Assembly: GCF_001644225.1 (NCBI RefSeq)
Contig: NZ_LSTV01000004.1
Location: 62,001-126,000 of the forward strand
Length of the DNA stretch: 64,000 bases
From: Microbacterium oleivorans
GTDB taxonomy: Bacteria > Actinomycetota > Actinomycetes > Actinomycetales > Microbacteriaceae
Reading direction: 5' to 3'
Under the pieces are notes generated by a model. That model worked only from the letters and a program-made list of their open reading frames with translations. It was not told the origin of the DNA and did no database searches. The position numbers were made by a program, and so were the translations under genes. Positions 1-14,842 of the stretch are shown here, piece by piece (positions within the stretch are counted from its first letter, which is position 1; each line of letters opens with the position of its first letter).

Positions 1-1301
1 CACCACGGCGAGAACACGAACGCGTTGATCGACAGCGAGGCGATCAGCAGTGTGATGAACGCGACACGGACGAAGAAGTTCGTGAGCATCGAGAATTGCT
101 CGAACCAGCGCAGACGAAGGTTGGGGTGGAACGGCTGCCCCTTCGTGTCTCCTCGCTGACCGGGCCACATCAGCTCGATGGCGCCGTAGGTCCACTTCAC
201 CTGCTGCGCGTCGTACCCCTTGAGGGTCGTCATGCCACCGACATCCGCCCGGGCGAACGGGCTGATCTTCGTCAGGTACCCGGCCGACTTGATCTGCAGG
301 GAGAGCAGCGAGTCCTCGACCTCGGAGTCCTTGACCCACGGCGAGTTCTGGTGGTTCTCCTTCATGATGTCGCGGAGCGCGGTCGTCGAGAAGATCGAGA
401 ACTGCCCGCCGAGCACCGCCATGTTGCGGCCGCGCAGCAGGTTCTGCATGTTGAAGGCCGCGAACTGGGTGCGCTGACCGGCGATCAGCCACTTGGCGAT
501 GAAGCCCTTGATGGGGCGGTCGTCGATCGTGTAGATCGCCGAGATGCCGCCGATGCGCGAGTCCGACACGGCCTCGTTCTCGAGGTACTCGACCGCGCGG
601 CGGTCGGCGGTCGTGTCGCCGTCCACGCCGAGCAGGTAGTCGTACCCCTCGACGAGGGCGTAGCCGTAGTTGAGCGCGCCGACCTTCTTGTCGGGGTTCT
701 TGCCGATGTCGTGGACGAACACCTCGGTGAACTGCAGTCCGAGCTCGGTCTCGACCTCGTGCGGTCCCGAGAACTCCGACGCGATCTTCACCGTGTCATC
801 CGAGGTGTTGTTGACGACCACGTGGATGACGTCGGGCACGCGGCTCTGCTCGAGGAGCGACCGGATGACGTCGGCGATCGACTCCGCCTCGTTGTAGGCC
901 GGGATGATGCATCCGATCGTCGACCGGTGCACCGAGTGGTTCTCGAGCACCGAGGCGAAGTCATCGGCGAACTCGTCCACCGGGACGATCTCGCCGGGAC
1001 CGCCGGGCGACGCGGCATAACCGGCCGTTTCGGGGGCCGCCTGCCAGGAACCCTGCGGGGCGACGCCCTGCCATTGCGGAGCGGGCTGCTGCCACTGCGG
1101 CTGCGCCGACTGCGCCTGCTGCCACTGCGGCTGCTGCTGCGCCTGCTGCCATTGCGGCTGCTGCTGCGCCTGAGCCTGCCACGCGGGCTGCTGGCCCCAC
1201 TGCGGCTCCTGGCCCGGCCAGGCGCCGGCCGCCGGCTGCGCGCCCACCGGGGGCTGCGCGGGCTGCCAGCCCTGCGGGCCGGGGATGTACGGACTCGTCA
1301 C
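1..1301 (-). CDS. Family 2 glycosyltransferase, membrane-bound, with Gln/Pro/Trp repeat N-terminus (partial, C-terminus off window)
   Basis: Processive-type GT2 enzyme, expected to polymerise or transfer sugars from a nucleotide-sugar at the inner membrane face. The GTG start at 1301 follows a GAGG ribosome site; 433 codons are in the window and the gene runs off the left edge. Residues 1-100 are low complexity, with five PQW units in QQQPQWQQ-like repeats. The catalytic domain starts near residue 128 (IPAYNEAES). It has DGD at 227-229, an ED pair at 329-330 and QQVKW at 366-370, which matches the QxxRW signature of hyaluronan/cellulose/chitin synthase-like enzymes with Lys for Arg. A hydrophobic segment begins near residue 405. 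The gene lies 20 bp after a lipoprotein gene, probably in one operon with both lipoproteins. The sugar and polymer cannot be told from sequence. Confidence 0.85.
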   Translation of the reverse strand, partial: MTSPYIPGPQGWQPAQPPVGAQPAAGAWPGQEPQWGQQPAWQAQAQQQPQWQQAQQQPQWQQAQSAQPQWQQPAPQWQGVAPQGSWQAAPETAGYAASPGGPGEIVPVDEFADDFASVLENHSVHRSTIGCIIPAYNEAESIADVIRSLLEQSRVPDVIHVVVNNTSDDTVKIASEFSGPHEVETELGLQFTEVFVHDIGKNPDKKVGALNYGYALVEGYDYLLGVDGDTTADRRAVEYLENEAVSDSRIGGISAIYTIDDRPIKGFIAKWLIAGQRTQFAAFNMQNLLRGRNMAVLGGQFSIFSTTALRDIMKENHQNSPWVKDSEVEDSLLSLQIKSAGYLTKISPFARADVGGMTTLKGYDAQQVKWTYGAIELMWPGQRGDTKGQPFHPNLRLRWFEQFSMLTNFFVRVAFITLLIASLSINAFVFSPW

Positions 1302-1321
1302 GTCGGTTCCTCGAACTGGAT

Positions 1322-2155
1322 TCACGGAGTGGTGGGACCGCCGGACCCGGGGGTGGTGGTCCACCCGTCGGTGCCGGTGGTTCCCTGGGAGTCGTCGTTC
1401 GACGTGCCGTCGGTTGCGCCCCCCGTGGACCCGTCGGTCTCTGTCTCACGAGGATAGATCGCAATCGGGATGACGGGGTAGACCGTCTGCTGCACGAACG
1501 ATTTGTCGTCGTCGGCCGTCCCCTCGACCCAGACGTCGAGCGCGAACTGCAGCGTGATCCCGTAGGTGTCCGGCGGCAGCTGGTTGATCGTCGTCTCGGG
1601 GACGAGCAGACCGCCCTGGTAGCTGTTGATCAGCAGGCCCTTGCTCGAGCGGATCGTGTCGGTGGGCACGAGCGTGCGGGGGTCGGCGCTGAACTGGAAC
1701 GGCGAGCTCACCTGGTTCGAGGACTGCGCCGTCTGCGACGAGATCGACACGTTCGAGAGGAACACGCGACGCTTCTGCTTGAGCACCGCCTTCTCGTCGA
1801 CGCGGGTGTCCTTGACGTTGACCGCGAAGCCGAAGGTCTTCGCGTTGTCGGGGTACCACTCGCGGGTGCGCTTGGAGTCGACGGCCCAGAAGTCGAGGAT
1901 GATGTCGAGACCGTCGGCGATCTCGTACGTCATCTGCACCGAGCCGTCGTAGGTGAACTGCGAGTCGAACGGCATCTCCACCGTCCCGGTCGCGGGCGTC
2001 GCGTTCGGAGCGGGGGTGGCGGCGACGTTCTCGCTCGTCCCCGAGATGGAGTTGAAGGCTTCGACGACCTGAGCGCACCCCGAGAGCGACAGCGCAGCCG
2101 CGGCGGCCAGGGCGACGACGCCGAGCCGGCGACGGGCGGTGGGACGGATGGACAT
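1322..2155 (-). CDS. Putative lipoprotein of unknown function, likely partner of the adjacent glycosyltransferase
   Basis: 277-residue exported lipoprotein. The ATG at 2155 is chosen because GAGGT lies 8 bases upstream and the product then starts with a classic signal: Arg-rich start, hydrophobic core and lipobox LSGC with the lipidated Cys at residue 27. A longer frame upstream lacks these. After a Thr/Pro/Ala-rich spacer comes a beta-rich domain ending in YGITLQFALDVWVEG, then a Gly/Thr/Ser-rich tail. The next lipoprotein has the same late motif (YVTLQFTYDFLVQT), so the two look like distant paralogues. I do not recognise the family. Position between that gene and the glycosyltransferase suggests a role in envelope polysaccharide export or anchoring, by inference only. 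Confidence 0.75.
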   Translation of the reverse strand: MSIRPTARRRLGVVALAAAAALSLSGCAQVVEAFNSISGTSENVAATPAPNATPATGTVEMPFDSQFTYDGSVQMTYEIADGLDIILDFWAVDSKRTREWYPDNAKTFGFAVNVKDTRVDEKAVLKQKRRVFLSNVSISSQTAQSSNQVSSPFQFSADPRTLVPTDTIRSSKGLLINSYQGGLLVPETTINQLPPDTYGITLQFALDVWVEGTADDDKSFVQQTVYPVIPIAIYPRETETDGSTGGATDGTSNDDSQGTTGTDGWTTTPGSGGPTTP

Positions 2156-2316
2156 GCGCGAACCTCGTTCGGTGTGAAGGATGGAGGGCACCGGCGGCGG
2201 GGTTCGGGTCGCCGCCGCCAGTGCCACGTCTTCACCGTAGGGTCGGAAACCCTCGCTCACCGGTGACTTCGCGAAGCCTCGCGCTGGTCTTTACCGGACC
2301 TTGAGGTTCTTGAGGT

Positions 2317-2943
2317 TCAGCCGGATGCCGCCTGCTGCGCGATGGCGACGGTCACCGTGTCGGTCGCGGTCTGCTTCGCGTACTCGTCGGCCTTGGGCTT
2401 GGTCTGCACGAGGAAGTCGTAGGTGAACTGCAGAGTCACGTACGTCGCGCCCTCGGGAACCTGCCCGACGTTGAAGGTCTGCGAGTAGCTGTAGGGCTTC
2501 AGGACGAGGTAGCCGTTCTTCACGCTCGCCTCGTCGATCTGCGGGTCGAGCGCGGGGAAGGTCTCTTCGGCGTTGGCCGGCACGGCGAGCATGGTCGCCT
2601 TCTGCAGGTACACCTTCTGCCCGTCGTTGGGCGTGATGGTCGTCACGAGCGACAGGCTGACGGGCTTGACGGCGTTCGCCGTCCACCGGTCCATCCGCAG
2701 GTCGGACCAGTAGTTGACGGCGACGCTCACGGCGCCCGCCTTCAGGTCCCGCTGCGTGGACCCGCTCGAGAGGTCGTTCTCGACGGGCGGCGCGACCACG
2801 ACCGGCGGACTCGACACTGCGGCGGAGGCCGTCGGGGTCGGGCTCTGCAGGGCCCACGGGGACGGGCCGCATCCCGACAGCAGGGCAGCGCCGCCGACGA
2901 TCGCCGCAGCGGCGGCCAGACGCATGGTTCTCATCCGCATCAT
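2317..2943 (-). CDS. Putative lipoprotein, distant paralogue of the next gene
   Basis: 208-residue lipoprotein. Start ATG at 2943 follows a GGAGGGG ribosome site; an in-frame ATG directly after it is an alternative. The signal peptide ends in lipobox LSGC with Cys at residue 25. A Pro/Ser/Thr/Val spacer precedes a beta-rich domain of about 140 residues ending in YVTLQFTYDFLVQT, matching the end of the domain in the neighbour at 1322-2155. It is first in the apparent operon with that gene and the glycosyltransferase. A TAGACT -10-like hexamer lies at 2966-2971 on the minus strand with no good -35. Function unknown. Confidence 0.72.
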   Translation of the reverse strand: MMRMRTMRLAAAAAIVGGAALLSGCGPSPWALQSPTPTASAAVSSPPVVVAPPVENDLSSGSTQRDLKAGAVSVAVNYWSDLRMDRWTANAVKPVSLSLVTTITPNDGQKVYLQKATMLAVPANAEETFPALDPQIDEASVKNGYLVLKPYSYSQTFNVGQVPEGATYVTLQFTYDFLVQTKPKADEYAKQTATDTVTVAIAQQAASG

Positions 2944-3162: not shown

Positions 3163-3726
3163 ATGAAGCACAAGATCAGCAAGGCTGCGGCGGCTCTCGC
3201 CGTCGCCATCGCGGCGGTCTTCGCGGCTCCGGCCGTCGCGAGCGCCTACACTCCGACCCCCGCCGGCCCCGAGACCATCACGGTCACCCCCGGCGGCACG
3301 GCTCCCGTTCAGTTCACCGGCTTCGAGCCGGGCGAGCAGGTCACCTTCACCCTGACGGGTGAGGGCATCGGCGCCGACAACCTCGCCTTCGTGTCCTTTG
3401 CTGTGACCTCCACGTCTGTCACGAAGGACGCGAGCGAAGACGGCGCGGCCACGGCCACCGTCACCCTCCCCGACAACGCGACCGGTACCTACACCCTGGC
3501 CGCAGTTGGCGCTGAGAGCGGCGCCGCCGAGACCGTGACGATCGCGCTCGCGGCTGCATCCGGCGGCTCGGACAGCGACGGCGGCAGCGCCGGCGGACCC
3601 GCCCTCGGTGACACCGGTTTCGACGGTGACGCGCTCCTCGGCCTCTGGGTCGGCGGCGGCATCCTCGTCCTCGCCGGTGCGAGCATCGCGGTCGCGACCT
3701 CGGTCCGCCGCACGCGTCGGGCATAA
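3163..3726 (+). CDS. Small secreted protein with LGDTG sortase-like C-terminal anchor
   Basis: 187 residues. I take the ATG at 3163 because it gives a typical signal peptide: Lys-rich start, Ala-rich core and an ASA cleavage site before YTPTPAGPE. A longer upstream frame gives no signal peptide. The mature part is a Thr/Val/Gly-rich beta domain of about 100 residues (ETITVTPGGTAPVQFTGFEPGEQVTFTLTG is split by short loops), then a Gly/Ser/Asp linker. The end has LGDTGF, a hydrophobic stretch of about 22 residues and RRTRRA, the layout of a sortase substrate. LGDTG departs from LPxTG and resembles the relaxed motifs of actinobacterial class E/F substrates. It stands alone between convergent genes and ends before a strong hairpin. 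Binding target unknown. Confidence 0.75.
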   Translation: MKHKISKAAAALAVAIAAVFAAPAVASAYTPTPAGPETITVTPGGTAPVQFTGFEPGEQVTFTLTGEGIGADNLAFVSFAVTSTSVTKDASEDGAATATVTLPDNATGTYTLAAVGAESGAAETVTIALAAASGGSDSDGGSAGGPALGDTGFDGDALLGLWVGGGILVLAGASIAVATSVRRTRRA

Positions 3727-6461: not shown

Positions 6462-6654
6462 GCTGCACGTCCCTTCTGGGGGCGACGCGCCTGCCGGATC
6501 GCGGTGACGTCTGCGGGCGCTCGTCCGTGTCTCGGTGATGCCAACCTATCCCGGCCACGGGCGAGGCGGGAAGGGGCGGGCCCGTTCAGGATGCCGACCT
6601 AGACTGGATGCCGCGAATCGCCCGCTCGCCTCGAGACCCCTCCCCCGCTTCGAC

Positions 6655-8598
6655 ATGACTCGACCTTCTTCCGCGCGCCTGCCAGGCCTCGACGGACTCC
6701 GCGCCGTCGCGGTCCTGCTGGTCGTCGTGTACCACCTGTTCCCGGCGCTGCCCGCCGGGTTCCTCGGTGTCGACGTCTTCTTCGTGATCTCCGGGTTCCT
6801 CATCACGACCCTGCTCCTCCGCGAGCGCGACGAGCACGGTCGGATCGGCCTGCTGGACTTCTGGCGGCGGCGGGCTCGCCGCCTGCTGCCCGCGATCGGG
6901 GTCGTCGTCCTCGTGACCGCGTCGCTCGCCTGGATGGTGGGCGGCGACATCCTCGTGGGTCTCGGCGGTCAGCTGCTCGGTGCGACGACGTTCTCGTACA
7001 ACTGGGTGGCCGTCGCGAACGGGTCGTCCTATTTCGGCGGCGGTCTCGACTCCTCCGCGCCCGAACTGCTGCGGAACCTCTGGTCCCTCGCCGTCGAGGA
7101 GCAGTTCTACCTGCTCTGGCCGCTGCTACTGCCGCTCGTCCTGAGGCTGCGACGAGGCCGCGTGCCCGTCGCCGTCGGGTTGGCGGCGGCATCCGTCCTG
7201 GCCGCGGTGCTCCTCGCCGGCAGCGGCGCGACCCGCGTGTACTTCGGCACGGACACGCACGCCTTCGGTCTGCTGCTCGGCGTCGCCCTCGCCTTCTTGC
7301 GCCCGGCGGAGCGCCGCGGCGGCGTGCCTGCCGTGGTCGGCGGCGCGGCGATCGCCGGGGTCATCGGGCTCGCGTTCGTGACGCCGGGCGACGGGATCGA
7401 GACCTTCCCCGGGCTTCTCGTCGCGGCATCCGTCCTGACCGTCGTGGCGATCGCGTCAGCCGTGCGCGCGGGTTCGCGCCTCGGACAGGCGCTGGACGTC
7501 GCGCCGCTGCGCTGGATCGGCGAGCGGTCCTTCGGGATCTACCTCTGGCACTGGCCTCTCGTCGTCATCCTGACGGTCGCGACCACGCGCTCCTCCCCCG
7601 ACGTCGCCGTCCCGGTCGAGGTCGCGCTCCTCACCCTGGCGCTCACGCTGGTCGCCGCCGAGGTGTCGTTCCGCTTCATCGAGCAGCCGGTACGCCGGCT
7701 CGGGTTCCGCGCGTCGCTTCGGTCCGCCGGGCGCGCGTTCCGCGGCGGCCCCGTGCGACGCCTCACCGCCACGGCCGCGATGGCCGCAGGGCTCCTCGTC
7801 GTCGCCGGCACGACCGCGGCGGTCGCCGACGCGCCGACGATGGCCTCGAGCGAAGCGGCCGTCCGCGACGGACGCGCGGCCCTCGACGCGGCATCCTCCC
7901 GCTCGCATCACGCGACGCTGCCCGGCGCCGCCCTCCGCAGCGACGACGCCGTGCTGCGTCCGGAGTGCCCGTCCGCGCACCTCAGCGACGACGAGGGACT
8001 CTGCACCCCGCCGGACGGCCGCCCCGCACCGCCCGCCTCCGTCCGTGTCGCCGGAGCGCGCGTGACCCTCGTCGGCGACTCCGTGATGCTCGCGTCCGCC
8101 GGCGGCCTCCTCGACCGGATGCCGGGCGCCCAAGTCGACGCGAAGGTGTCCCGCTCGATGGGGGCCGGCGTCGCGATCGTCGACCGTCTCGCCGCGCGCG
8201 GACAGCTGCGCGACTACGTCGTCGTGGGTCTCGGCACGAACGGACCGGTGGACCCCGACGACCTCGCGCGCCTGAAGAAGGATGTCGGCCCTCACCGCAC
8301 GCTCGTGCTCGTGACCGCCCACGCGCCCCGCGACTGGATCCCGGGCGTCAACGAGGAGCTCGAGGCCTTCGCGCAGCACACCCCTGGGGTCGCGATCGCA
8401 GACTGGTCGGCGGCGATCAGCGGTCACGAAGACCTGCTGGCGGGCGACGGCATCCACCCCGGCGCCCGTGGCGGACAGCGCTACGCCGACGCCGTGGCCG
8501 ACGCGATCGACGGTGTCGAGAACAGCCGCGCGCAGCTGCGCTACCGCGTCGAGCTCGCCCAGTGGGCCGTCGCCCAGACCTTCGACGCCGCGCGCTGA
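6655..8598 (+). CDS. Membrane acyltransferase 3 with C-terminal SGNH domain (OafA/YrhL type)
   Basis: 647 residues. Residues 1-370 are an acyltransferase-3 domain with about ten membrane segments, beginning PGLDGLRAVAVLLVVVYH and including the R-x10-H type motif of the family. A periplasmic C-terminal part has SGNH hydrolase blocks: GDSVMLAS (block I Ser), GTNGP (block III) and DGIHPGARGG (Asp/His block V). Such proteins O-acetylate peptidoglycan or surface polysaccharide with the SGNH domain as final transferase. The ATG at 6655 is the first good start but lacks a clear Shine-Dalgarno; TAGACT at 6600-6605 could be its -10. Neighbours give no hint of the acceptor. Confidence 0.88.
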   Translation: MTRPSSARLPGLDGLRAVAVLLVVVYHLFPALPAGFLGVDVFFVISGFLITTLLLRERDEHGRIGLLDFWRRRARRLLPAIGVVVLVTASLAWMVGGDILVGLGGQLLGATTFSYNWVAVANGSSYFGGGLDSSAPELLRNLWSLAVEEQFYLLWPLLLPLVLRLRRGRVPVAVGLAAASVLAAVLLAGSGATRVYFGTDTHAFGLLLGVALAFLRPAERRGGVPAVVGGAAIAGVIGLAFVTPGDGIETFPGLLVAASVLTVVAIASAVRAGSRLGQALDVAPLRWIGERSFGIYLWHWPLVVILTVATTRSSPDVAVPVEVALLTLALTLVAAEVSFRFIEQPVRRLGFRASLRSAGRAFRGGPVRRLTATAAMAAGLLVVAGTTAAVADAPTMASSEAAVRDGRAALDAASSRSHHATLPGAALRSDDAVLRPECPSAHLSDDEGLCTPPDGRPAPPASVRVAGARVTLVGDSVMLASAGGLLDRMPGAQVDAKVSRSMGAGVAIVDRLAARGQLRDYVVVGLGTNGPVDPDDLARLKKDVGPHRTLVLVTAHAPRDWIPGVNEELEAFAQHTPGVAIADWSAAISGHEDLLAGDGIHPGARGGQRYADAVADAIDGVENSRAQLRYRVELAQWAVAQTFDAAR

Positions 8599-8828: not shown

Positions 8829-9398
8829 TTACTTGGCCTCGTCGGCCTTCTCGTCGTCGGACGCGACGGCGTCCTCGGCGGTGGCTTCGGCAGCAGCGCC
8901 CTCCTCGGGCGACTCGGCACCGGCGTCGGCGGCGTCCTCAGCGGGCCTCTCGACCTCGGTCTCCTCAGCAGCGGGCTCCTCGGCGGCCGGAGCAGCGGCG
9001 GCCGGAGCAGCCTTCTTCGACGACTTCGCCTTCGGCGTGACGGGCTCGAGGACGAGCTCGATCACGGCCATGGGCGCGTTGTCGCCCTTGCGGTTGCCGA
9101 CCTTCGTGATGCGGGTGTAGCCACCCTCACGCTCGGCGACCAGCGGCGCGATCTCGGCGAAGAGCTCGTGCACGACGGACTTGTCGCCGATGACCGACAG
9201 GACGCGACGGCGAGCGTGCAGGTCGCCGCGCTTGGCGAACGTCACCAGGCGCTCGGCGAACGGACGCAGGCGCTTGGCCTTGGTCTCGGTCGTGGTGATC
9301 GACTTGTGCGTGAACAGCGCGGCAGCGAGGTTCGCAAGCAGAAGACGCTCGTGGGCGGGGCCGCCACCGAGGCGGGCACCCTTCGTGGGCTTGGGCAT
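8829..9398 (-). CDS. rplQ: 50S ribosomal protein L17 with acidic C-terminal tail
   Basis: 189 residues. The first about 120 match L17 (start [20 protein letters not shown], then [18 protein letters not shown]). The remaining about 65 are an Ala/Glu-rich, low-complexity, acidic tail absent from short L17 proteins but common in actinobacteria. L17 sits near the exit tunnel of the large subunit. Last gene of the infA-rpmJ-rpsM-rpsK-rpoA-rplQ set; hairpin terminator follows. Confidence 0.97.
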
Positions 9399-9454
9399 GT
9401 CAATTACTCCTGGAAAGAAATTCAGTCAGTGGACCGGGGCGAACCGGAGTCCGC

Positions 9455-10444
9455 TCAGACGGTCTCGTCGTCGTAGCCGCCGTAGAAGTGCGCACCGTCG
9501 AACCCGGGGACCGAGTCCTTCAGCGACAGGCCGAGCGAGACGAGCTTGTCCTTGACCTCGTCGACCGACTTCTGACCGAAGTTGCGGATGTTCATGAGCT
9601 GCGTCTCCGAAAGGGCGACGAGCTCGGACACCGTGTTGATGCCCTCGCGCTTGAGGCAGTTGTACGAGCGGACCGACAGGTCGAGGTCCTCGATCGGCAT
9701 CGAGAGCTCGTTGGTCATGACCTCGGCGACCGGCGCGGGGCCGATCTCGATGCCCTCGGCCTCGACGTTCAGCTCGCGGGCGAGACCGAACAGCTCGACC
9801 AGCGTGCGACCGGCCGACGCGACGGCGTCGCGGGGGCTGATCGACGACTTGGTCTCGACGTCCAGGACGAGCTTGTCGAAGTCGGTGCGCTCACCGGCAC
9901 GGGTGGCGTCGACGCGGTAGCTGACCTTGAGGACGGGCGAGTAGATCGAGTCGATCGGGATCTGACCGGCCTCGGCGTACTCGTTGCGGTTCTGCGTGGC
10001 CGAGACGTAGCCGCGGCCGCGCTCGATCGTCAGCTCGAGCTCGAACTTCGCCGAGTCGTTGAGCGTCGCGATGACCAGGTCGGGGTTGTGGACCTCGACA
10101 CCCGCGGGAGCGGAGATGTCGGCGGCCGTGACCTCGCCGGCGCCCGTCTTGCGCAGGTACGCGGTGATGGGCTCGTCGCGCTCGCTGGAGACCACCAGCT
10201 GCTTGATGTTGAGGATGATCTCGGTGACATCCTCCTTGACACCCGGGACGGTGCTGAACTCGTGCAGCACGCCGTCGATGCGGATGCTGGTGACCGCGGC
10301 ACCCGGGATCGACGACAGCAGGCTGCGACGCAGCGCGTTGCCGATCGTGTAGCCGAAGCCCGGCTCGAGGGGCTCGATGACGAATCGGCTGCGGAAGTCG
10401 CCGACCTTCTCCTCGGTCAGAGTGGGACGCTGTGCAATGAGCAC
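9455..10444 (-). CDS. rpoA: DNA-directed RNA polymerase subunit alpha
   Basis: 329 residues with the N-terminal assembly domain ([20 protein letters not shown], near residue 30) and C-terminal DNA/activator-binding domain ([16 protein letters not shown], near 255; [13 protein letters not shown]), ending in an acidic, aromatic tail. Alpha dimers start assembly of the polymerase core with the beta and beta-prime genes at 37055-44469. In many bacteria rpsD lies directly upstream; here rpsK is the neighbour, with a 116-bp gap holding a hairpin. ATG with an AAAGGAACAC ribosome site. Confidence 0.98.
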
Positions 10445-10513
10445 TATGTGTTCCTTTCAGTCACGTGACCGCTATATGACACGTGCAGTTGGTGAAGTGT
10501 TGAGTTGTGACCG

Positions 10514-10552
10514 GGATGCCGGGGCACGACGCACGTCGCACCCCCGGCATCC
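10514..10552 (-). terminator. Hairpin between rpsK and rpoA, possible attenuator
   Basis: GGATGCCGGGG (10514-10524) pairs with CCCCGGCATCC (10542-10552), 11 bp, 17-base loop, directly after the rpsK stop. No T-run follows on the minus strand, so it may partly terminate or act as an mRNA-processing or stability element ahead of rpoA. It occupies the place where rpsD is found in other actinobacteria. Confidence 0.55.
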
Positions 10553-10560
10553 GTCGAGGA

Positions 10561-10959
10561 TCAGACGCGGCGGCGCTTCGGGGGGCGGCAGCCGTTGTGG
10601 GCCTGAGGCGTGACGTCCTGGATCGAACCGACCTCGAGGCCGGCGGCCGTCAGCGAACGGATCGCGGTCTCGCGGCCCGAGCCGGGGCCCTTGACGAAGA
10701 CGTCGACCTTCTTGACGCCGTGCTCCTGCGCCTGACGCGCAGCGGACTCGGCGGCCATACCGGCGGCGTACGGGGTCGACTTGCGCGAGCCCTTGAAGCC
10801 GACGCCACCCGAGGAGGCCCAGCTGATGACCGCACCCGAGGGGTCGGTGATCGAAACGATCGTGTTGTTGAACGTCGACTTGATGTGGGCCTGGCCCAGC
10901 GCGATGTTCTTCTTCTCCTTGCGGCGCGGCTTGCGCGCAGCGGACTTGGCCTGTGCCAT
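10561..10959 (-). CDS. rpsK: 30S ribosomal protein S11
   Basis: 132 residues, full length. Family features: basic N-terminus ([14 protein letters not shown]), [32 protein letters not shown] and the C-terminal end [18 protein letters not shown]. It lies on the platform of the small subunit near the E site. Starts 34 bp past the rpsM stop. Confidence 0.98.
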
Positions 10960-10993
10960 GTGAGTGTTCTCCTAAACCTGTGGCGGCCGCGCT

Positions 10994-12262: not shown

Positions 12263-13291
12263 ATGGACTTCGACGACGCCGCGTCCCGGATCGAGACGCG
12301 TCCCGCGCTCCTCCGAGCGGGGATGACCCGCCGCGACATCGCGACGCTGAGCCACGGAGATCTTCGGAAGCTCGCTCGGGGCGCGTTCGTCGCATCGGAG
12401 ACGTGGGATGCGGCGTGGCCCGCCGAACGCCATCTCCTGCAGGTGGCGGCCTATGAGCAGCGCCGGCGCGGCGGCGTCGTCTACTCCCACCTGACCGCTG
12501 CGCTGCTGCACGGACTGCCTCTCTGGGGCGCCCCGCCGACGCACGTGCACGTCTCCGACACGCAGCACAACGGGGCGGTCTCACGAGGTGCAACATACGT
12601 GTCCCGCCATCGATGCGCCGTACCCGACGTCGACGTGGTCTCATCGGGTGGCATCGTCCTCACCGCGCCCGCGCGCACCGTCGCGGACGTGCTGCGGACG
12701 ACGCCCCGCGAGACCGCGATCGCAATAGCGGATGCCGCGCTCCGCGCGGTCGCGTGGGACGCTCGGCAGCGGCTCTACGACGCCGATGCAGCCGAATATC
12801 TCCGCGCCGAGATCGCGCGACGGTTGGCCACAGGCGCTCGCGGGGTACGGCAGGCGCGCGAACTCCTGGAGCTCGCCGTCGGGCGCTCGGAGTCCGCGGG
12901 AGAAAGTGTGAGCCGCTTGCGCCTGCACGACCTGGGATTCCGGCGGATCAGGCTTCAGGTGCCGGTGGGGCCCTACTTCGTCGACTTCGGCCTCGATGAC
13001 GCCGCGGTGTGGGGCGAGTACGACGGCGAGGTGAAGTACCGCGACCTCGCCATGCGGCACGGGCGGGCCCTGGAGGATGTCCTGCGCGCGGAGAAGGAGC
13101 GGGAGGACTGGATTCGAGGGCTGACAGGGCGTCGCGTCATCCGCTGGACGACCGCCGACATCCGCTCCCCCGGCGGTCTGCGCTCGAAGCTCTACCGGTT
13201 CGACGTGTTCCCCACCCCGAATCACCGCCGAAACGCCGAATCACCACCCGAAGGCGCGCATTCGGGTGGTGACGGGGCAACCGAGTGGTGA
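12263..13291 (+). CDS. AbiEi-like winged-helix protein with DUF559/Vsr-like nuclease-type C-terminal domain
   Basis: 342 residues from the ATG at 12263 (ribosome site GAGGGTGGGC). The N-terminus (LLRAGMTRRDIATLSHGDLRKLARGAFV) resembles the AbiEi-type antitoxin winged helix; the middle YSHLTAALLHGLPLW is typical of this actinobacterial family. The C-terminal part has ESAGESVSRLRLHDLGF, VDFGLDD and EYDGEVKY, a spaced E/D/ExK set like DUF559 or Vsr-fold PD-(D/E)xK nucleases. No AbiEii nucleotidyltransferase toxin lies beside it, so a true type IV toxin-antitoxin pair is not shown. The last about 24 residues and the stop are encoded by the right copy of the flanking palindrome. Function unproven. 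Confidence 0.68.
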   Translation: MDFDDAASRIETRPALLRAGMTRRDIATLSHGDLRKLARGAFVASETWDAAWPAERHLLQVAAYEQRRRGGVVYSHLTAALLHGLPLWGAPPTHVHVSDTQHNGAVSRGATYVSRHRCAVPDVDVVSSGGIVLTAPARTVADVLRTTPRETAIAIADAALRAVAWDARQRLYDADAAEYLRAEIARRLATGARGVRQARELLELAVGRSESAGESVSRLRLHDLGFRRIRLQVPVGPYFVDFGLDDAAVWGEYDGEVKYRDLAMRHGRALEDVLRAEKEREDWIRGLTGRRVIRWTTADIRSPGGLRSKLYRFDVFPTPNHRRNAESPPEGAHSGGDGATEW

Positions 13292-13297
13292 CTCGGC
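13217..13297. repeat. Nested palindromic repeat, right copy, overlapping the AbiEi-like gene end
   Basis: CGAATCACC (13218-13226) pairs with GGTGACTCG (13287-13295), and CGAATCACC (13237-13245) pairs with GGTGACGGG (13268-13276), the latter imperfectly; both share one axis (sum 26513). Layout is the same as the left copy, 1.1 kb away. The gene stop TGA is at 13289-13291, inside the last arm. Confidence 0.75.
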
Positions 13298-13317
13298 GAG
13301 TAAGCGCCGCTTCGCGC

Positions 13318-13995
13318 TCAGCGAGCGGACAGTCGCGAGAGGATGTCGGCCTGCGGGTCGTACGTGACCGGGACGACCTCGTCGTTCACGACGAGCGTCG
13401 GTGTCCCGGTGGCGCCTTCGGGCAGCTCCTGCGACTGGGCGAAGCTCTTGTACTCGTGGTCCTTGATCGACTTCTCGAGCTCGGCGGTCACGTTCACGCC
13501 GGCATCCTTCGCGATCTGGATGAGCTCGTCGTCGGTCAGGCCCGGCGTCTGCTCCTGGGGCCGCTTGTCCCAGAGCGCACGGAAGAAGGCGTAGGCGTTG
13601 TCGGGGTCGGCTTCGGCCACGGCGTACATGGCGGATGCCGCACGGCTTGAGTACTCGGTGCCCTGCGACAGCCGGTCGAGGATCGTGACCGGGTGCACCT
13701 CGAGGGTGATGCTGCCGTCGTCGACGAGGCCCGAGATCGTCTTGCCCTCGGCCTCCTCGAACTGGCCGCAGTACGGGCACATGAAGTCCACGTACGTGGC
13801 GACGGTGTCGGGCCCGTCGCCGAAGGTGATCGCACCGGTCTCGCGGTTGATGCCGCTGGCCTGCGGGACCGGTCCGGGGTCCGACGCCTGCGAGTTCAGC
13901 ACAGCGACAACGGCGACGACACCCACCAGGACCGCCACCACCGCGACGCTGATCCAGATCGCGAACCAGTTGGTCTTACCCGTGGCCGTCGCCAT
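13318..13995 (-). CDS. Membrane-anchored DsbA-family thioredoxin-fold protein
   Basis: 225 residues from the ATG at 13995 (AGGAGG eight bases before). Residues 10-34 are a single membrane anchor; the outside part has a thioredoxin fold with CPYC at 73-76 (TYVDFMCPYCGQFE) and a cis-Pro loop (GATGTPTLVVND). This matches actinobacterial DsbA/MdbA-like oxidoreductases that form or rearrange disulfides in secreted proteins. It follows map by 13 bp on the same strand, so it may be the last gene of the secY-adk-map transcript. That fits a role in handling exported proteins. Confidence 0.85.
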   Translation of the reverse strand: MATATGKTNWFAIWISVAVVAVLVGVVAVVAVLNSQASDPGPVPQASGINRETGAITFGDGPDTVATYVDFMCPYCGQFEEAEGKTISGLVDDGSITLEVHPVTILDRLSQGTEYSSRAASAMYAVAEADPDNAYAFFRALWDKRPQEQTPGLTDDELIQIAKDAGVNVTAELEKSIKDHEYKSFAQSQELPEGATGTPTLVVNDEVVPVTYDPQADILSRLSAR

Positions 13996-14008
13996 GTGCG
14001 TGTCCTCC

Positions 14009-14842
14009 TCAGGAGATGGGGGTGGGGGTGATGCCGAAGGCCGCGAGTCCCGCGGCACCGCCGTCGGGGGCCGTCAGCACCCAGACACCTCCATCGTGCA
14101 CCGCGACGCTATGTTCCCAATGAGAGCCGTCCTGGCCGTCGACCGTGCTGACGGTCCAGTCGTCGTCCTCGACGAGGGTCGCTTCGTCCCCCGCGACGAT
14201 CATGGGCTCGATCGCGACGCACAGCCCCGGCCGCACCTCGGGTCCGAGGTCGGCGACGCGGTAGTTGAAGACCGTCGGGCCCTCGTGCATCTTGCGGCCG
14301 ATCCCGTGTCCGACGTAATCGCGGAGGATGCCGTAGCCCTCCCCCGACGCCTCGACGTAGGACTGCACGGCGTCGCCGATCTCGCCGACGCGCGAGGCCG
14401 AGGCGAGCGCGGCGATGCCGGCCCACAGCGAGCCCTCGGTCACGTCCGACAGTCGCTGACGACGTTCGACGAGCTCGGGACGGTCCGGGTCGGGCACGAC
14501 GATCGTGATCGCCGAGTCCCCGTTCCACCCTTCGAACTGCGCGCCGCAGTCGATCGAGACGATGTCCCCCGGCTGCAGGACCCGATCACCCGGGATGCCG
14601 TGGACGACCTCCTGGTTGACCGAGATGCACGTCGTGTGGTGGTAGCCGCGGACCAGCTGGAAGTTCGATTCCGCCCCGCGGGCGAGGATCGTGCGCTCGG
14701 CGATGGCATCGAGCTCCGCGGTCGTCGCACCCGCGCGAACCGCCGGACGCACGGCATCCAATGCCGCCGCGGTGATGAGACCCGGTTCGACCATTGCGCG
14801 CAGCTGCGCGGGCGTCTTGTAGATGGAGCGGCGGAAGACCAT
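14009..14842 (-). CDS. map: Methionine aminopeptidase, type I
   Basis: 277 residues. Removes the N-terminal Met from new proteins using two metal ions. All five metal ligands are visible: Asp98 (SIDCGA), Asp109 (NGDSAI), His179 (GHGIG), Glu212 (IEPM) and Glu243 (HWEHSVAV). Substrate His is in YHHTTCISVN. The start overlaps the adk stop as TGATG. Many actinobacteria carry a second map gene elsewhere. Confidence 0.96.
   Translation of the reverse strand: MVFRRSIYKTPAQLRAMVEPGLITAAALDAVRPAVRAGATTAELDAIAERTILARGAESNFQLVRGYHHTTCISVNQEVVHGIPGDRVLQPGDIVSIDCGAQFEGWNGDSAITIVVPDPDRPELVERRQRLSDVTEGSLWAGIAALASASRVGEIGDAVQSYVEASGEGYGILRDYVGHGIGRKMHEGPTVFNYRVADLGPEVRPGLCVAIEPMIVAGDEATLVEDDDWTVSTVDGQDGSHWEHSVAVHDGGVWVLTAPDGGAAGLAAFGITPTPIS

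What the first reader, a model, noticed from the sequence alone, without database searches (positions are those of the whole stretch)
1..2943. Glycosyltransferase with PQW-repeat head and two sibling lipoproteins
A GT2 synthase with five PQW units in a Gln-rich N-terminus sits in an apparent operon with two lipoproteins that share a late TLQF motif. This combination does not match an exopolysaccharide system I can name. The repeats could bind carbohydrate or protein partners, and the lipoproteins could guide the polymer out.
Basis: partly seen in the sequence, partly recalled or inferred. Interest (0 to 1): 0.55.

Follow-up and report, generated by a model that had tools for sequence, protein, structure and literature searches.

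The report
Unnamed actinobacterial exopolysaccharide synthase gene set
The three genes are part of a conserved but apparently undescribed gene set of actinobacteria that probably builds and exports a cellulose-like surface polymer, with two related lipoproteins as likely outside partners of the polymer-making enzyme.

Summary
A GT2 glycosyltransferase with five PQW units, lipoprotein A and lipoprotein B lie in line on the minus strand; the GT2 gene runs 418 bases past the left edge. (1) Co-occurrence: around 69 GT2 homologues from named actinobacterial records, lipoprotein B is found in 63, A in 45, an OmpR-family regulator in 65 and a GH6 glycosidase in 59 (51 loci with full flanks: 50, 33, 50, 50). 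In a second family (unnamed, f33) GT2 has an A-type lipoprotein and the regulator in 9 of 9 loci, GH6 in 8. (2) Fold: A and B are deep paralogues (profile comparison E 7e-10), both predicted Ig/arrestin-like beta-sandwiches. The PQW head is confined to 7 of 70 sequences, variable and predicted cytosolic, so not the core. Best reading: a synthase-dependent exopolysaccharide system working like CslA-GlxA-CslZ or Bcs/Ccs systems, with GH6 as trimming hydrolase and the lipoproteins in the place of GlxA/BcsB; neither of those domains was found in the genome. Product (beta-1,4-glycan) and lipoprotein role are inferred. New variant of a known kind.

The parts
1..1301 (-). GT2 family polysaccharide synthase-like gene (572 aa; runs 418 bases past the left window edge, G000:C4:61583-63301)
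   Evidence: Pfam PF00535/PF13632/PF13641; VDGDT, DSEVEDSLLSLQIKSAG and QQVKW at 95% identity or more per column in 68 aligned sequences, own included; hydrophobic stretches only after the catalytic domain, from aa 402
1071..1205 (-). PQW-containing, Gln/Pro/Trp-rich N-terminal head of GT2 (aa 33-77), lineage-specific
   Evidence: five PQW; W- and Q-rich heads in 7 of 70 sequences, with 0 to 5 PQW each
1322..2155 (-). lipoprotein A (277 aa), predicted Ig/arrestin-like beta-sandwich with low-confidence tails
2317..2943 (-). lipoprotein B (208 aa), sibling of A; Cys-Gly-x-x-Pro-Trp at the lipobox conserved at 90% or more per column
3163..3726 (+). possible cell-wall surface protein (N-terminal and C-terminal hydrophobic stretches, LGDTG-like motif, Arg tail), divergent from lipoprotein B; neighbour, membership uncertain
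   Evidence: paralogue of the protein at L004:11055-11612; relatives in 16 of 69 named loci; LGDTG read by eye

Best explanation
A synthase-dependent exopolysaccharide system of Actinomycetes. Shown by sequence: GT2 has a catalytic domain with processive-synthase-like motifs (VDGDT, E-D, QxxKW) followed by hydrophobic membrane stretches; two paralogous lipoproteins with like predicted beta-sandwich folds are its steady partners; a GH6 with a predicted membrane anchor and conserved acidic motifs and an OmpR-family response regulator lie beside it. Inferred: GT2 polymerises a sugar nucleotide inside the cell and passes the chain through its own membrane helices; lipoproteins A and B, anchored on the outer leaflet, dock at the exit and receive or guide the chain (the place held by BcsB, GlxA or CcsB elsewhere); GH6, which acts on beta-1,4-glycans in known members, trims or releases the chain, so the product is most likely a beta-1,4-linked, cellulose-like glycan; the regulator, with the PAS histidine kinase and degenerate GGDEF membrane protein nearby, controls it. 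The PQW head is a fast-changing, probably disordered cytosolic tail that may tune clustering of the synthase.
For: Families: GT2, GH6, regulator; HK, GGDEF-like, sugar transferase. 51 full-flank named loci: lipoprotein B 50, GH6 50, regulator 50, A 33, HK 41, against 26, 12, 18 and 22 for the unrelated neighbours truA, pfkB, UspA and OafA; all 69 loci: 63, 59, 65, 45, 51 against 33, 13, 21 and 27. In f33: A 9 of 9, regulator 9, GH6 8, these four neighbours 0 of 9. 199 genomes of the family: strong B in 25 and strong A in 9, every one among the 30 with strong GT2, although A is not beside GT2 in 8 of those 9. Class sample of 296: all 15 GT2-positive genomes (E 1e-40 or better) hold a relative of A or B. 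GH6 keeps the RDC, EPD and GESDG motifs in 60 aligned sequences and is the only GH6 found in the genome. GH6 and beta-1,4-glycans, and the CslA-GlxA-CslZ parallel: PMC9040799 and PMC11022532, passages. GT2 with B but no such regulator or GH6 in the stretches held of L157 and L194, so GT2 and lipoprotein are the tightest core.
Against: No product, mutant or interaction data exist here. QxxKW replaces the usual QxxRW (the R form is recalled). The closest NCBIfam model, PgaC_IcaA, scores 52 bits against a cut-off of 422, and the solved relatives found by profile are two chondroitin synthase entries at E 3e-4 over 67 positions, so GT2 need not make a glucan. The lipoprotein fold is a common sandwich (best Z 10 and 11) and says nothing about sugar binding. 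GT2 was not folded with the lipoproteins. GH6 was not found in 10 of 69 named loci; 9 of these are loci cut short on at least one side, L157 is not. G097 and G159 have GT2 (48-49% identity) with no lipoprotein in the 16 kb held. B was not found in any f33 locus (0 of 9). Weak, mostly partial B or A matches (E 1e-6 to 1e-3) occur in GT2-negative genomes too. The set is patchy: lipoprotein B is found in 63 of 149 genomes of the genus.
Confidence: 0.6

Rival explanations
1. The lipoproteins are sensors or accessory factors of the neighbouring two-component system and only indirectly linked to GT2: they would bind the histidine kinase outside the cell and report envelope stress.
For: The regulator is in 50 of 51 full-flank loci and the PAS kinase in 41 of 51. 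The best NCBIfam model of the regulator is MtrA, though below cut-off (152.6 against 300 bits); that the lipoprotein LpqB acts on MtrAB is recalled, not read here.
Against: In L157 (Microlunatus) and L194 (unnamed, f13) GT2 and lipoprotein B are neighbours with no regulator of this type in the stretch held. In f33 lipoprotein A follows GT2 directly while the regulator is on the other strand, and the kinase is within reach in only 3 of 9 loci.
Confidence: 0.2
2. GT2 makes a different glycan, for example a GlcNAc- or galactose-containing polymer or a wall-attached glycan; GH6 is a wall remodeller that opens a passage through peptidoglycan. This shares the synthase part of the best explanation and differs in the product.
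For: PgaC/IcaA is the nearest NCBIfam model; Streptomyces CslZ is said to act on peptidoglycan and alpha-chitin as well as cellulose (PMC11022532, PMC9040799 passages).
Against: GH6 enzymes are said to cleave beta-1,4 bonds (PMC9040799 passage); one GH6 was found in the genome and it is here.
Confidence: 0.35
3. GT2 is a lipid-carrier glycosyltransferase of a conventional Wzx/Wzy-type cluster: a Bac_transf sugar transferase and a DUF4012 protein lie 4 to 10 kb to the left.
For: PF02397 and PF13196 proteins at L004:4526-6313 and 9158-10960.
Against: The sugar transferase is within reach in 0 of 69 named loci (1 of 9 in f33) and DUF4012 in 31 of 69 (0 of 9), whereas GH6, regulator and lipoprotein are near-constant. 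GT2 has the E-D and QxxKW motifs and C-terminal hydrophobic stretches; that single-sugar lipid transferases usually lack QxxRW is recalled.
Confidence: 0.12

Closest known systems
CslA-GlxA-CslZ (LpmP) system of Streptomyces (PMC11022532, PMC9040799; passages seen)
   Same: Actinobacterial GT2-type membrane synthase, an extracytoplasmic partner, and a GH6 hydrolase on the other strand
   Different: No PF09118 domain in the window's genome, while 66 of 296 genomes of the class have one (that GlxA bears this domain is recalled); two paralogous beta-sandwich lipoproteins instead; a regulator and often a kinase in the locus
Bcs cellulose synthase (BcsA-BcsB-BcsZ)
   Same: GT2 synthase, extracytoplasmic partner, cognate glucanase (layout as told in PMC11022532 and PMC7710045 passages)
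   Different: No BcsB match in the genome; the control rang in E. coli and B. subtilis. GH6 instead of GH8. No PilZ domain among the matches of GT2
Ccs cellulose synthase of Clostridia (CcsZABHI, PMC7710045, passages seen)
   Same: Gram-positive synthase with a membrane-anchored outside partner of predicted beta fold (CcsB) and cognate hydrolase
   Different: CcsZ is GH5; CcsB has two membrane helices and a CBM11-like domain; CcsA has PilZ; no MBOAT/DHHW pair was searched for here
B. subtilis ydaJKLMN exopolysaccharide operon (PMC7064775, passages seen)
   Same: Putative synthase with a membrane protein bearing a degenerate GGDEF domain in the same locus
   Different: YdaK keeps an I-site; none was seen by eye in the window genome's GGDEF-like protein (sequence printed); a BcsB-like partner (recalled as YdaN; BcsB rings in B. 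subtilis) rather than lipoproteins

Membership tests
GT2 processive beta-glycosyltransferases | GT2 domain with DxD, E/T-E-D and QxxRW motifs and membrane helices | tested here: inconclusive
   GT2 Pfam hits; VDGDT, DSEVEDSLL and QQVKW conserved in 68 sequences, but with K in place of R; hydrophobic stretches after aa 402. Motif roles recalled; processivity itself untested
CslA-GlxA-CslZ cellulose synthase | GH6 hydrolase beside the synthase gene | tested here: met
   PF01341 E 1.2e-53; GH6 in 59 of 69 named loci
CslA-GlxA-CslZ cellulose synthase | radical copper oxidase GlxA as partner | tested here: not met
   PF09118: 0 in own genome, 66 of 296 genomes of the class positive; that GlxA bears PF09118 is recalled
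Bcs cellulose synthase | BcsB subunit | tested here: not met
   PF03170: 0 in own genome, controls positive in 2 of 14
Bcs cellulose synthase | PilZ c-di-GMP domain on the synthase | tested here: not met
   no PilZ among Pfam matches at E up to 1
Poly-N-acetylglucosamine synthase PgaC/IcaA | score above NCBIfam TIGR03937 cut-off | tested here: not met
   52.4 against 422.3 bits
GH6 glycosidases | Pfam family score and conserved catalytic Asp motifs | tested here: met
   183 bits over cut-off 27; RDC, EPD and GESDG motifs conserved in 60 sequences; residue roles recalled
Lipoprotein A/B as a known Pfam or NCBIfam family | match over a curated cut-off | tested here: not met
   none over cut-off for P0002 and P0003; in 62 B sequences 3 weak Pfam families, each in 1 member; the other A sequences were not scanned
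Arrestin/ApaG-type sandwich proteins | homology beyond a common Ig-like fold | tested here: inconclusive
   best VIA rows 3ugx_B Z 10.0 (A, rmsd 3.3, 129 aligned) and 11.2 (B, rmsd 3.0, 128 aligned), 10 and 6% identity

The most novel reading that the evidence does not exclude
The lipoprotein pair is a new class of extracytoplasmic partner of a polysaccharide synthase: Ig/arrestin-like lipoproteins that replace BcsB/GlxA and are needed for chain export. They would define a further Gram-positive cellulose-like secretion system, common in Microbacterium and present in a second actinobacterial family, in which different lineages keep A, B or both beside the same synthase.
Probability: 0.4. Interest if true: 0.68.

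Novelty: new variant of a known kind. Interest (0 to 1): 0.5.

Why it matters
Microbacterium and its relatives are common environmental and plant-associated bacteria (general knowledge), and I found no paper in the held library that describes this gene set. A conserved synthase set with a new lipoprotein partner would give a testable route to one of their surface polymers, and a second actinobacterial solution to moving a glycan chain from the membrane through a thick wall without GlxA or BcsB.

Tried and rejected
PQW repeats as a carbohydrate-binding module: rejected, because W- and Q-rich heads occur in 7 of 70 sequences, PQW itself varies from 0 to 5 among them, and the head precedes a domain expected in the cytosol.

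The three-gene operon as the conserved unit: rejected. In Glaciihabitans, Plantibacter, Lacisediminihabitans and Cryobacterium loci B is divergent from GT2 and A is not in the locus (the Glaciihabitans locus L161 shows no B at all); three Microbacterium loci (L124, L132, L166) also have B on the opposite strand. Eight A homologues lie away from GT2 in their genomes (another contig in seven, about 1 Mb away in one); in the four such loci examined (L084, L085, L086, L088) the neighbours look like housekeeping genes (judged by eye).

TLQF motif as sole proof of kinship: too weak alone (BLASTP E 0.004); replaced by profiles (the aligned columns include the signal peptide, and the A alignment has low diversity, Neff 2) and a tree with A and B on two sides of a 100/100 split (20 of 59 inner branches open, midpoint root, long branches flagged as possibly misplaced).

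Sequence search of solved structures with the lipoprotein profiles: none for A; for B only matches at E 0.1 or above. Foldseek alone gave low TM scores by query (0.44 or less in the rows shown).

PF09118 hits in GT2-positive genomes G467, G495 and G350 are on contigs other than the GT2 contig.

Literature: no paper in the held library joined the terms (0 each); two searches listed 4 and 1 papers, of which I opened PMC10384088 (passages): it names a bcsA in one Microbacterium strain that I could not tie to this GT2. One search (DUF4012) listed 3 papers, not opened.

Rows dropped: two Bacteroidota loci (L168, L169; 24-25% identity) from all counts of 69; lipoprotein A of L136 and L108 and B of L114; B of L152 from A2 (same coordinates as in L163, the second copy of that strain); GT2 of L153 and L159, and RR of L112, L116, L130, L135, L165, as short; heads of L153 and L159 could not be seen; A3 holds 31 of the 65 GT2 rows; the tree used picked loci, 63 rows. 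The 30, 25 and 9 strong genomes are those with E below about 1e-130, 1e-30 and 1e-20 among the 33, 34 and 18 listed; its p-values do not correct for kinship. The 69 named loci include two copies from one strain (L152, L163) and several near-identical strains.
Full report
What is there. The window is G000:C4:62001-126000 of a 2.97-Mb genome; the closest named relatives of the locus are Microbacterium oleivorans and other Microbacterium. GT2 starts at window 1301 on the minus strand and ends 418 bases left of the window. Lipoprotein A (1322-2155) and B (2317-2943) lie upstream on the same strand. Left of the window, in locus L004, come an OmpR-family response regulator (13437-14477, +), a GH6 glycosidase with an N-terminal hydrophobic stretch (12342-13352, +), an endonuclease/exonuclease/phosphatase protein, a small secreted protein, a DUF4012 protein, a degenerate GGDEF membrane protein, a PAS histidine kinase and a Bac_transf sugar transferase.

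The head. PQW occurs five times in a head rich in Q, P, A and W (2 of 20,000 shuffles reach five). W- and Q-rich heads occur in 7 of 70 sequences (own, L099-L103, L162), with 5, 0, 1, 0, 1, 2 and 3 PQW; two further heads could not be seen. Other Microbacterium have short heads, some of them Tyr-rich (L125, L126, L130), and strong conservation begins just before the catalytic domain. No hydrophobic stretch precedes the catalytic domain. The head is therefore most likely a disordered cytosolic tail under weak constraint (inference).

The synthase. In 68 aligned sequences, own included, the motifs VDGDT, DSEVEDSLLSLQIKSAG and AQQVKW are conserved at 95% or more per column. K replaces the R of the usual QxxRW (the R form is recalled). 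GT2 is far below the cut-off of every NCBIfam model it matches, PgaC/IcaA being the nearest, and sequence searches found no close relative of known structure. It looks like an uncharacterised GT2 subfamily.

The lipoproteins. Profiles of 44 A and 62 B sequences align over 200 columns (hhalign probability 96.5, E 7e-10). AlphaFold2 models (A: mean pLDDT 69, 14 of the 18 ten-residue blocks between 61 and 240 above 85; B: mean 85) show a like order of strands, and both have the same best structural match, one lobe of visual arrestin (3ugx_B, Z 10.0 and 11.2). The fold is common and shows no function. In a tree of 63 picked rows A and B fall on two sides of a 100/100 split; the A side holds the Microbacterium A proteins, the unlinked A proteins of other genera and the lipoproteins next to GT2 in family f33.

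Co-occurrence. Of 71 loci from one scan of genome contigs, 69 are actinobacterial. In these 69, profiles find B in 63, A in 45, GH6 in 59 and the regulator in 65; in the 51 with full flanks 50, 33, 50 and 50. The window's unrelated neighbours truA, pfkB, UspA and OafA are within reach in 26, 12, 18 and 22 of 51; the genus is partly syntenic, so linkage within Microbacterium alone would be weaker evidence. Two things go beyond synteny. First, order and direction change while membership stays: B is divergent from GT2 in Plantibacter, Glaciihabitans, Cryobacterium and Lacisediminihabitans. Second, the set recurs in family f33: GT2 next to an A-type lipoprotein in 9 of 9 loci, with the regulator in 9 and GH6 in 8 (the ninth locus ends at a contig end), none of the four unrelated neighbours, and no B.

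Unlinked co-occurrence. In 199 genomes of the family, strong A (9) and strong B (25) occur only among the 30 genomes with strong GT2; A is not beside GT2 in 8 of the 9. Hypergeometric p is 1e-8 for A and 4e-27 for B by genome, and 3e-4 and 5e-14 by genus, without correction for kinship. Three of the 30 GT2 genomes have neither in strong form: G040 has a weak B-like gene beside GT2, G097 and G159 none in the stretch held. The weaker matches listed (9 genomes each) include GT2-negative genomes; most are short matches near the signal-peptide end. In a class sample of 296, all 15 GT2-positive genomes hold a relative of A or B; in G546 two B-type genes lie far from GT2; four GT2-negative genomes have partial B matches at E 3e-4 to 1e-3. 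In the genus itself B is patchy, 63 of 149 genomes (GT2 was not searched in that sample).

How it most likely works. GT2 would polymerise inside and export through its own helices; the lipoproteins, on the outer leaflet, would receive the chain; GH6 would trim it; the kinase, regulator and degenerate GGDEF protein would control it. Shown here: families, motifs, predicted anchors, predicted fold and association. Inferred: every functional step. The parallel is CslA-GlxA-CslZ of Streptomyces, where cslZ, coding for a GH6 protein, is divergently transcribed in the cslA-glxA cluster and CslA-GlxA make cellulose in vitro (passages of PMC11022532 and PMC9040799). A GlxA-type domain was not found here (0 in own genome, 66 of 296 in the class), nor BcsB. 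So it works like these systems but is not a member of them.

Additional genes. In two Microbacterium loci read in full (L106, L117) a kinase and two membrane proteins, one of them GGDEF-like, stand between GT2, A and B (the Pfam scan covered the two L106 membrane proteins, the kinase was recognised by its likeness to the scanned one of L004); wide gaps suggest the same in others (GT2-A gap over 900 bases in 20 of 46). The kinase is within reach in 51 of 69 named loci and 3 of 9 f33 loci; the GGDEF-like protein in 37 of 69 and 0 of 9 by tblastn, although a GGDEF protein beside GT2 in f33 locus L200 scores above the Pfam cut-off. DUF4012 (31 of 69) and the sugar transferase (0 of 69) are loosely or not linked.

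Verdict. I rate it a new variant of a known kind, of moderate interest.

Noticed in passing
window 3163-3726 and L004:11055-11612: Two paralogous small secreted proteins (37% identity over 116 columns) with a C-terminal hydrophobic stretch and basic tail; the window one has an LGDTG motif that looks like a sortase signal (by eye). They flank the cluster.
   Followed up: partly
window 6535-8598: An OafA/YrhL-like acyltransferase with a C-terminal SGNH-like part (named by eye, not scanned) near the cluster; relatives within reach of GT2 in 27 of 69 named loci. It could acetylate the polymer.
   Followed up: partly
L004:13437-14477: The response regulator carries a long Pro/His/Gln-rich linker with short tandem repeats between receiver and DNA-binding domains; the linker is poorly conserved among homologues.
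   Followed up: no
L152 and L163; G009: Lacisediminihabitans changchengi has the locus on two separate contigs; G009 also has two copies near the two ends of one contig, which may be an assembly overlap.
   Followed up: no
L125, L126, L130 (GT2 N-termini): Other Microbacterium have Tyr-rich (PQY, APGY) heads where the M. oleivorans clade has Trp-rich ones, perhaps a repeated gain of aromatic low-complexity tails on the synthase.
   Followed up: no
L004:7996-9126: Membrane protein with a weak GGDEF match (E 0.053) whose active-site motif seems replaced (SRTQV at that place, by eye), possibly a c-di-GMP receptor or a relic.
   Followed up: partly
L153: The GT2 match of Microbacterium sp. B19 is split into two frames, so the gene looks broken or mis-sequenced there.
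   Followed up: no
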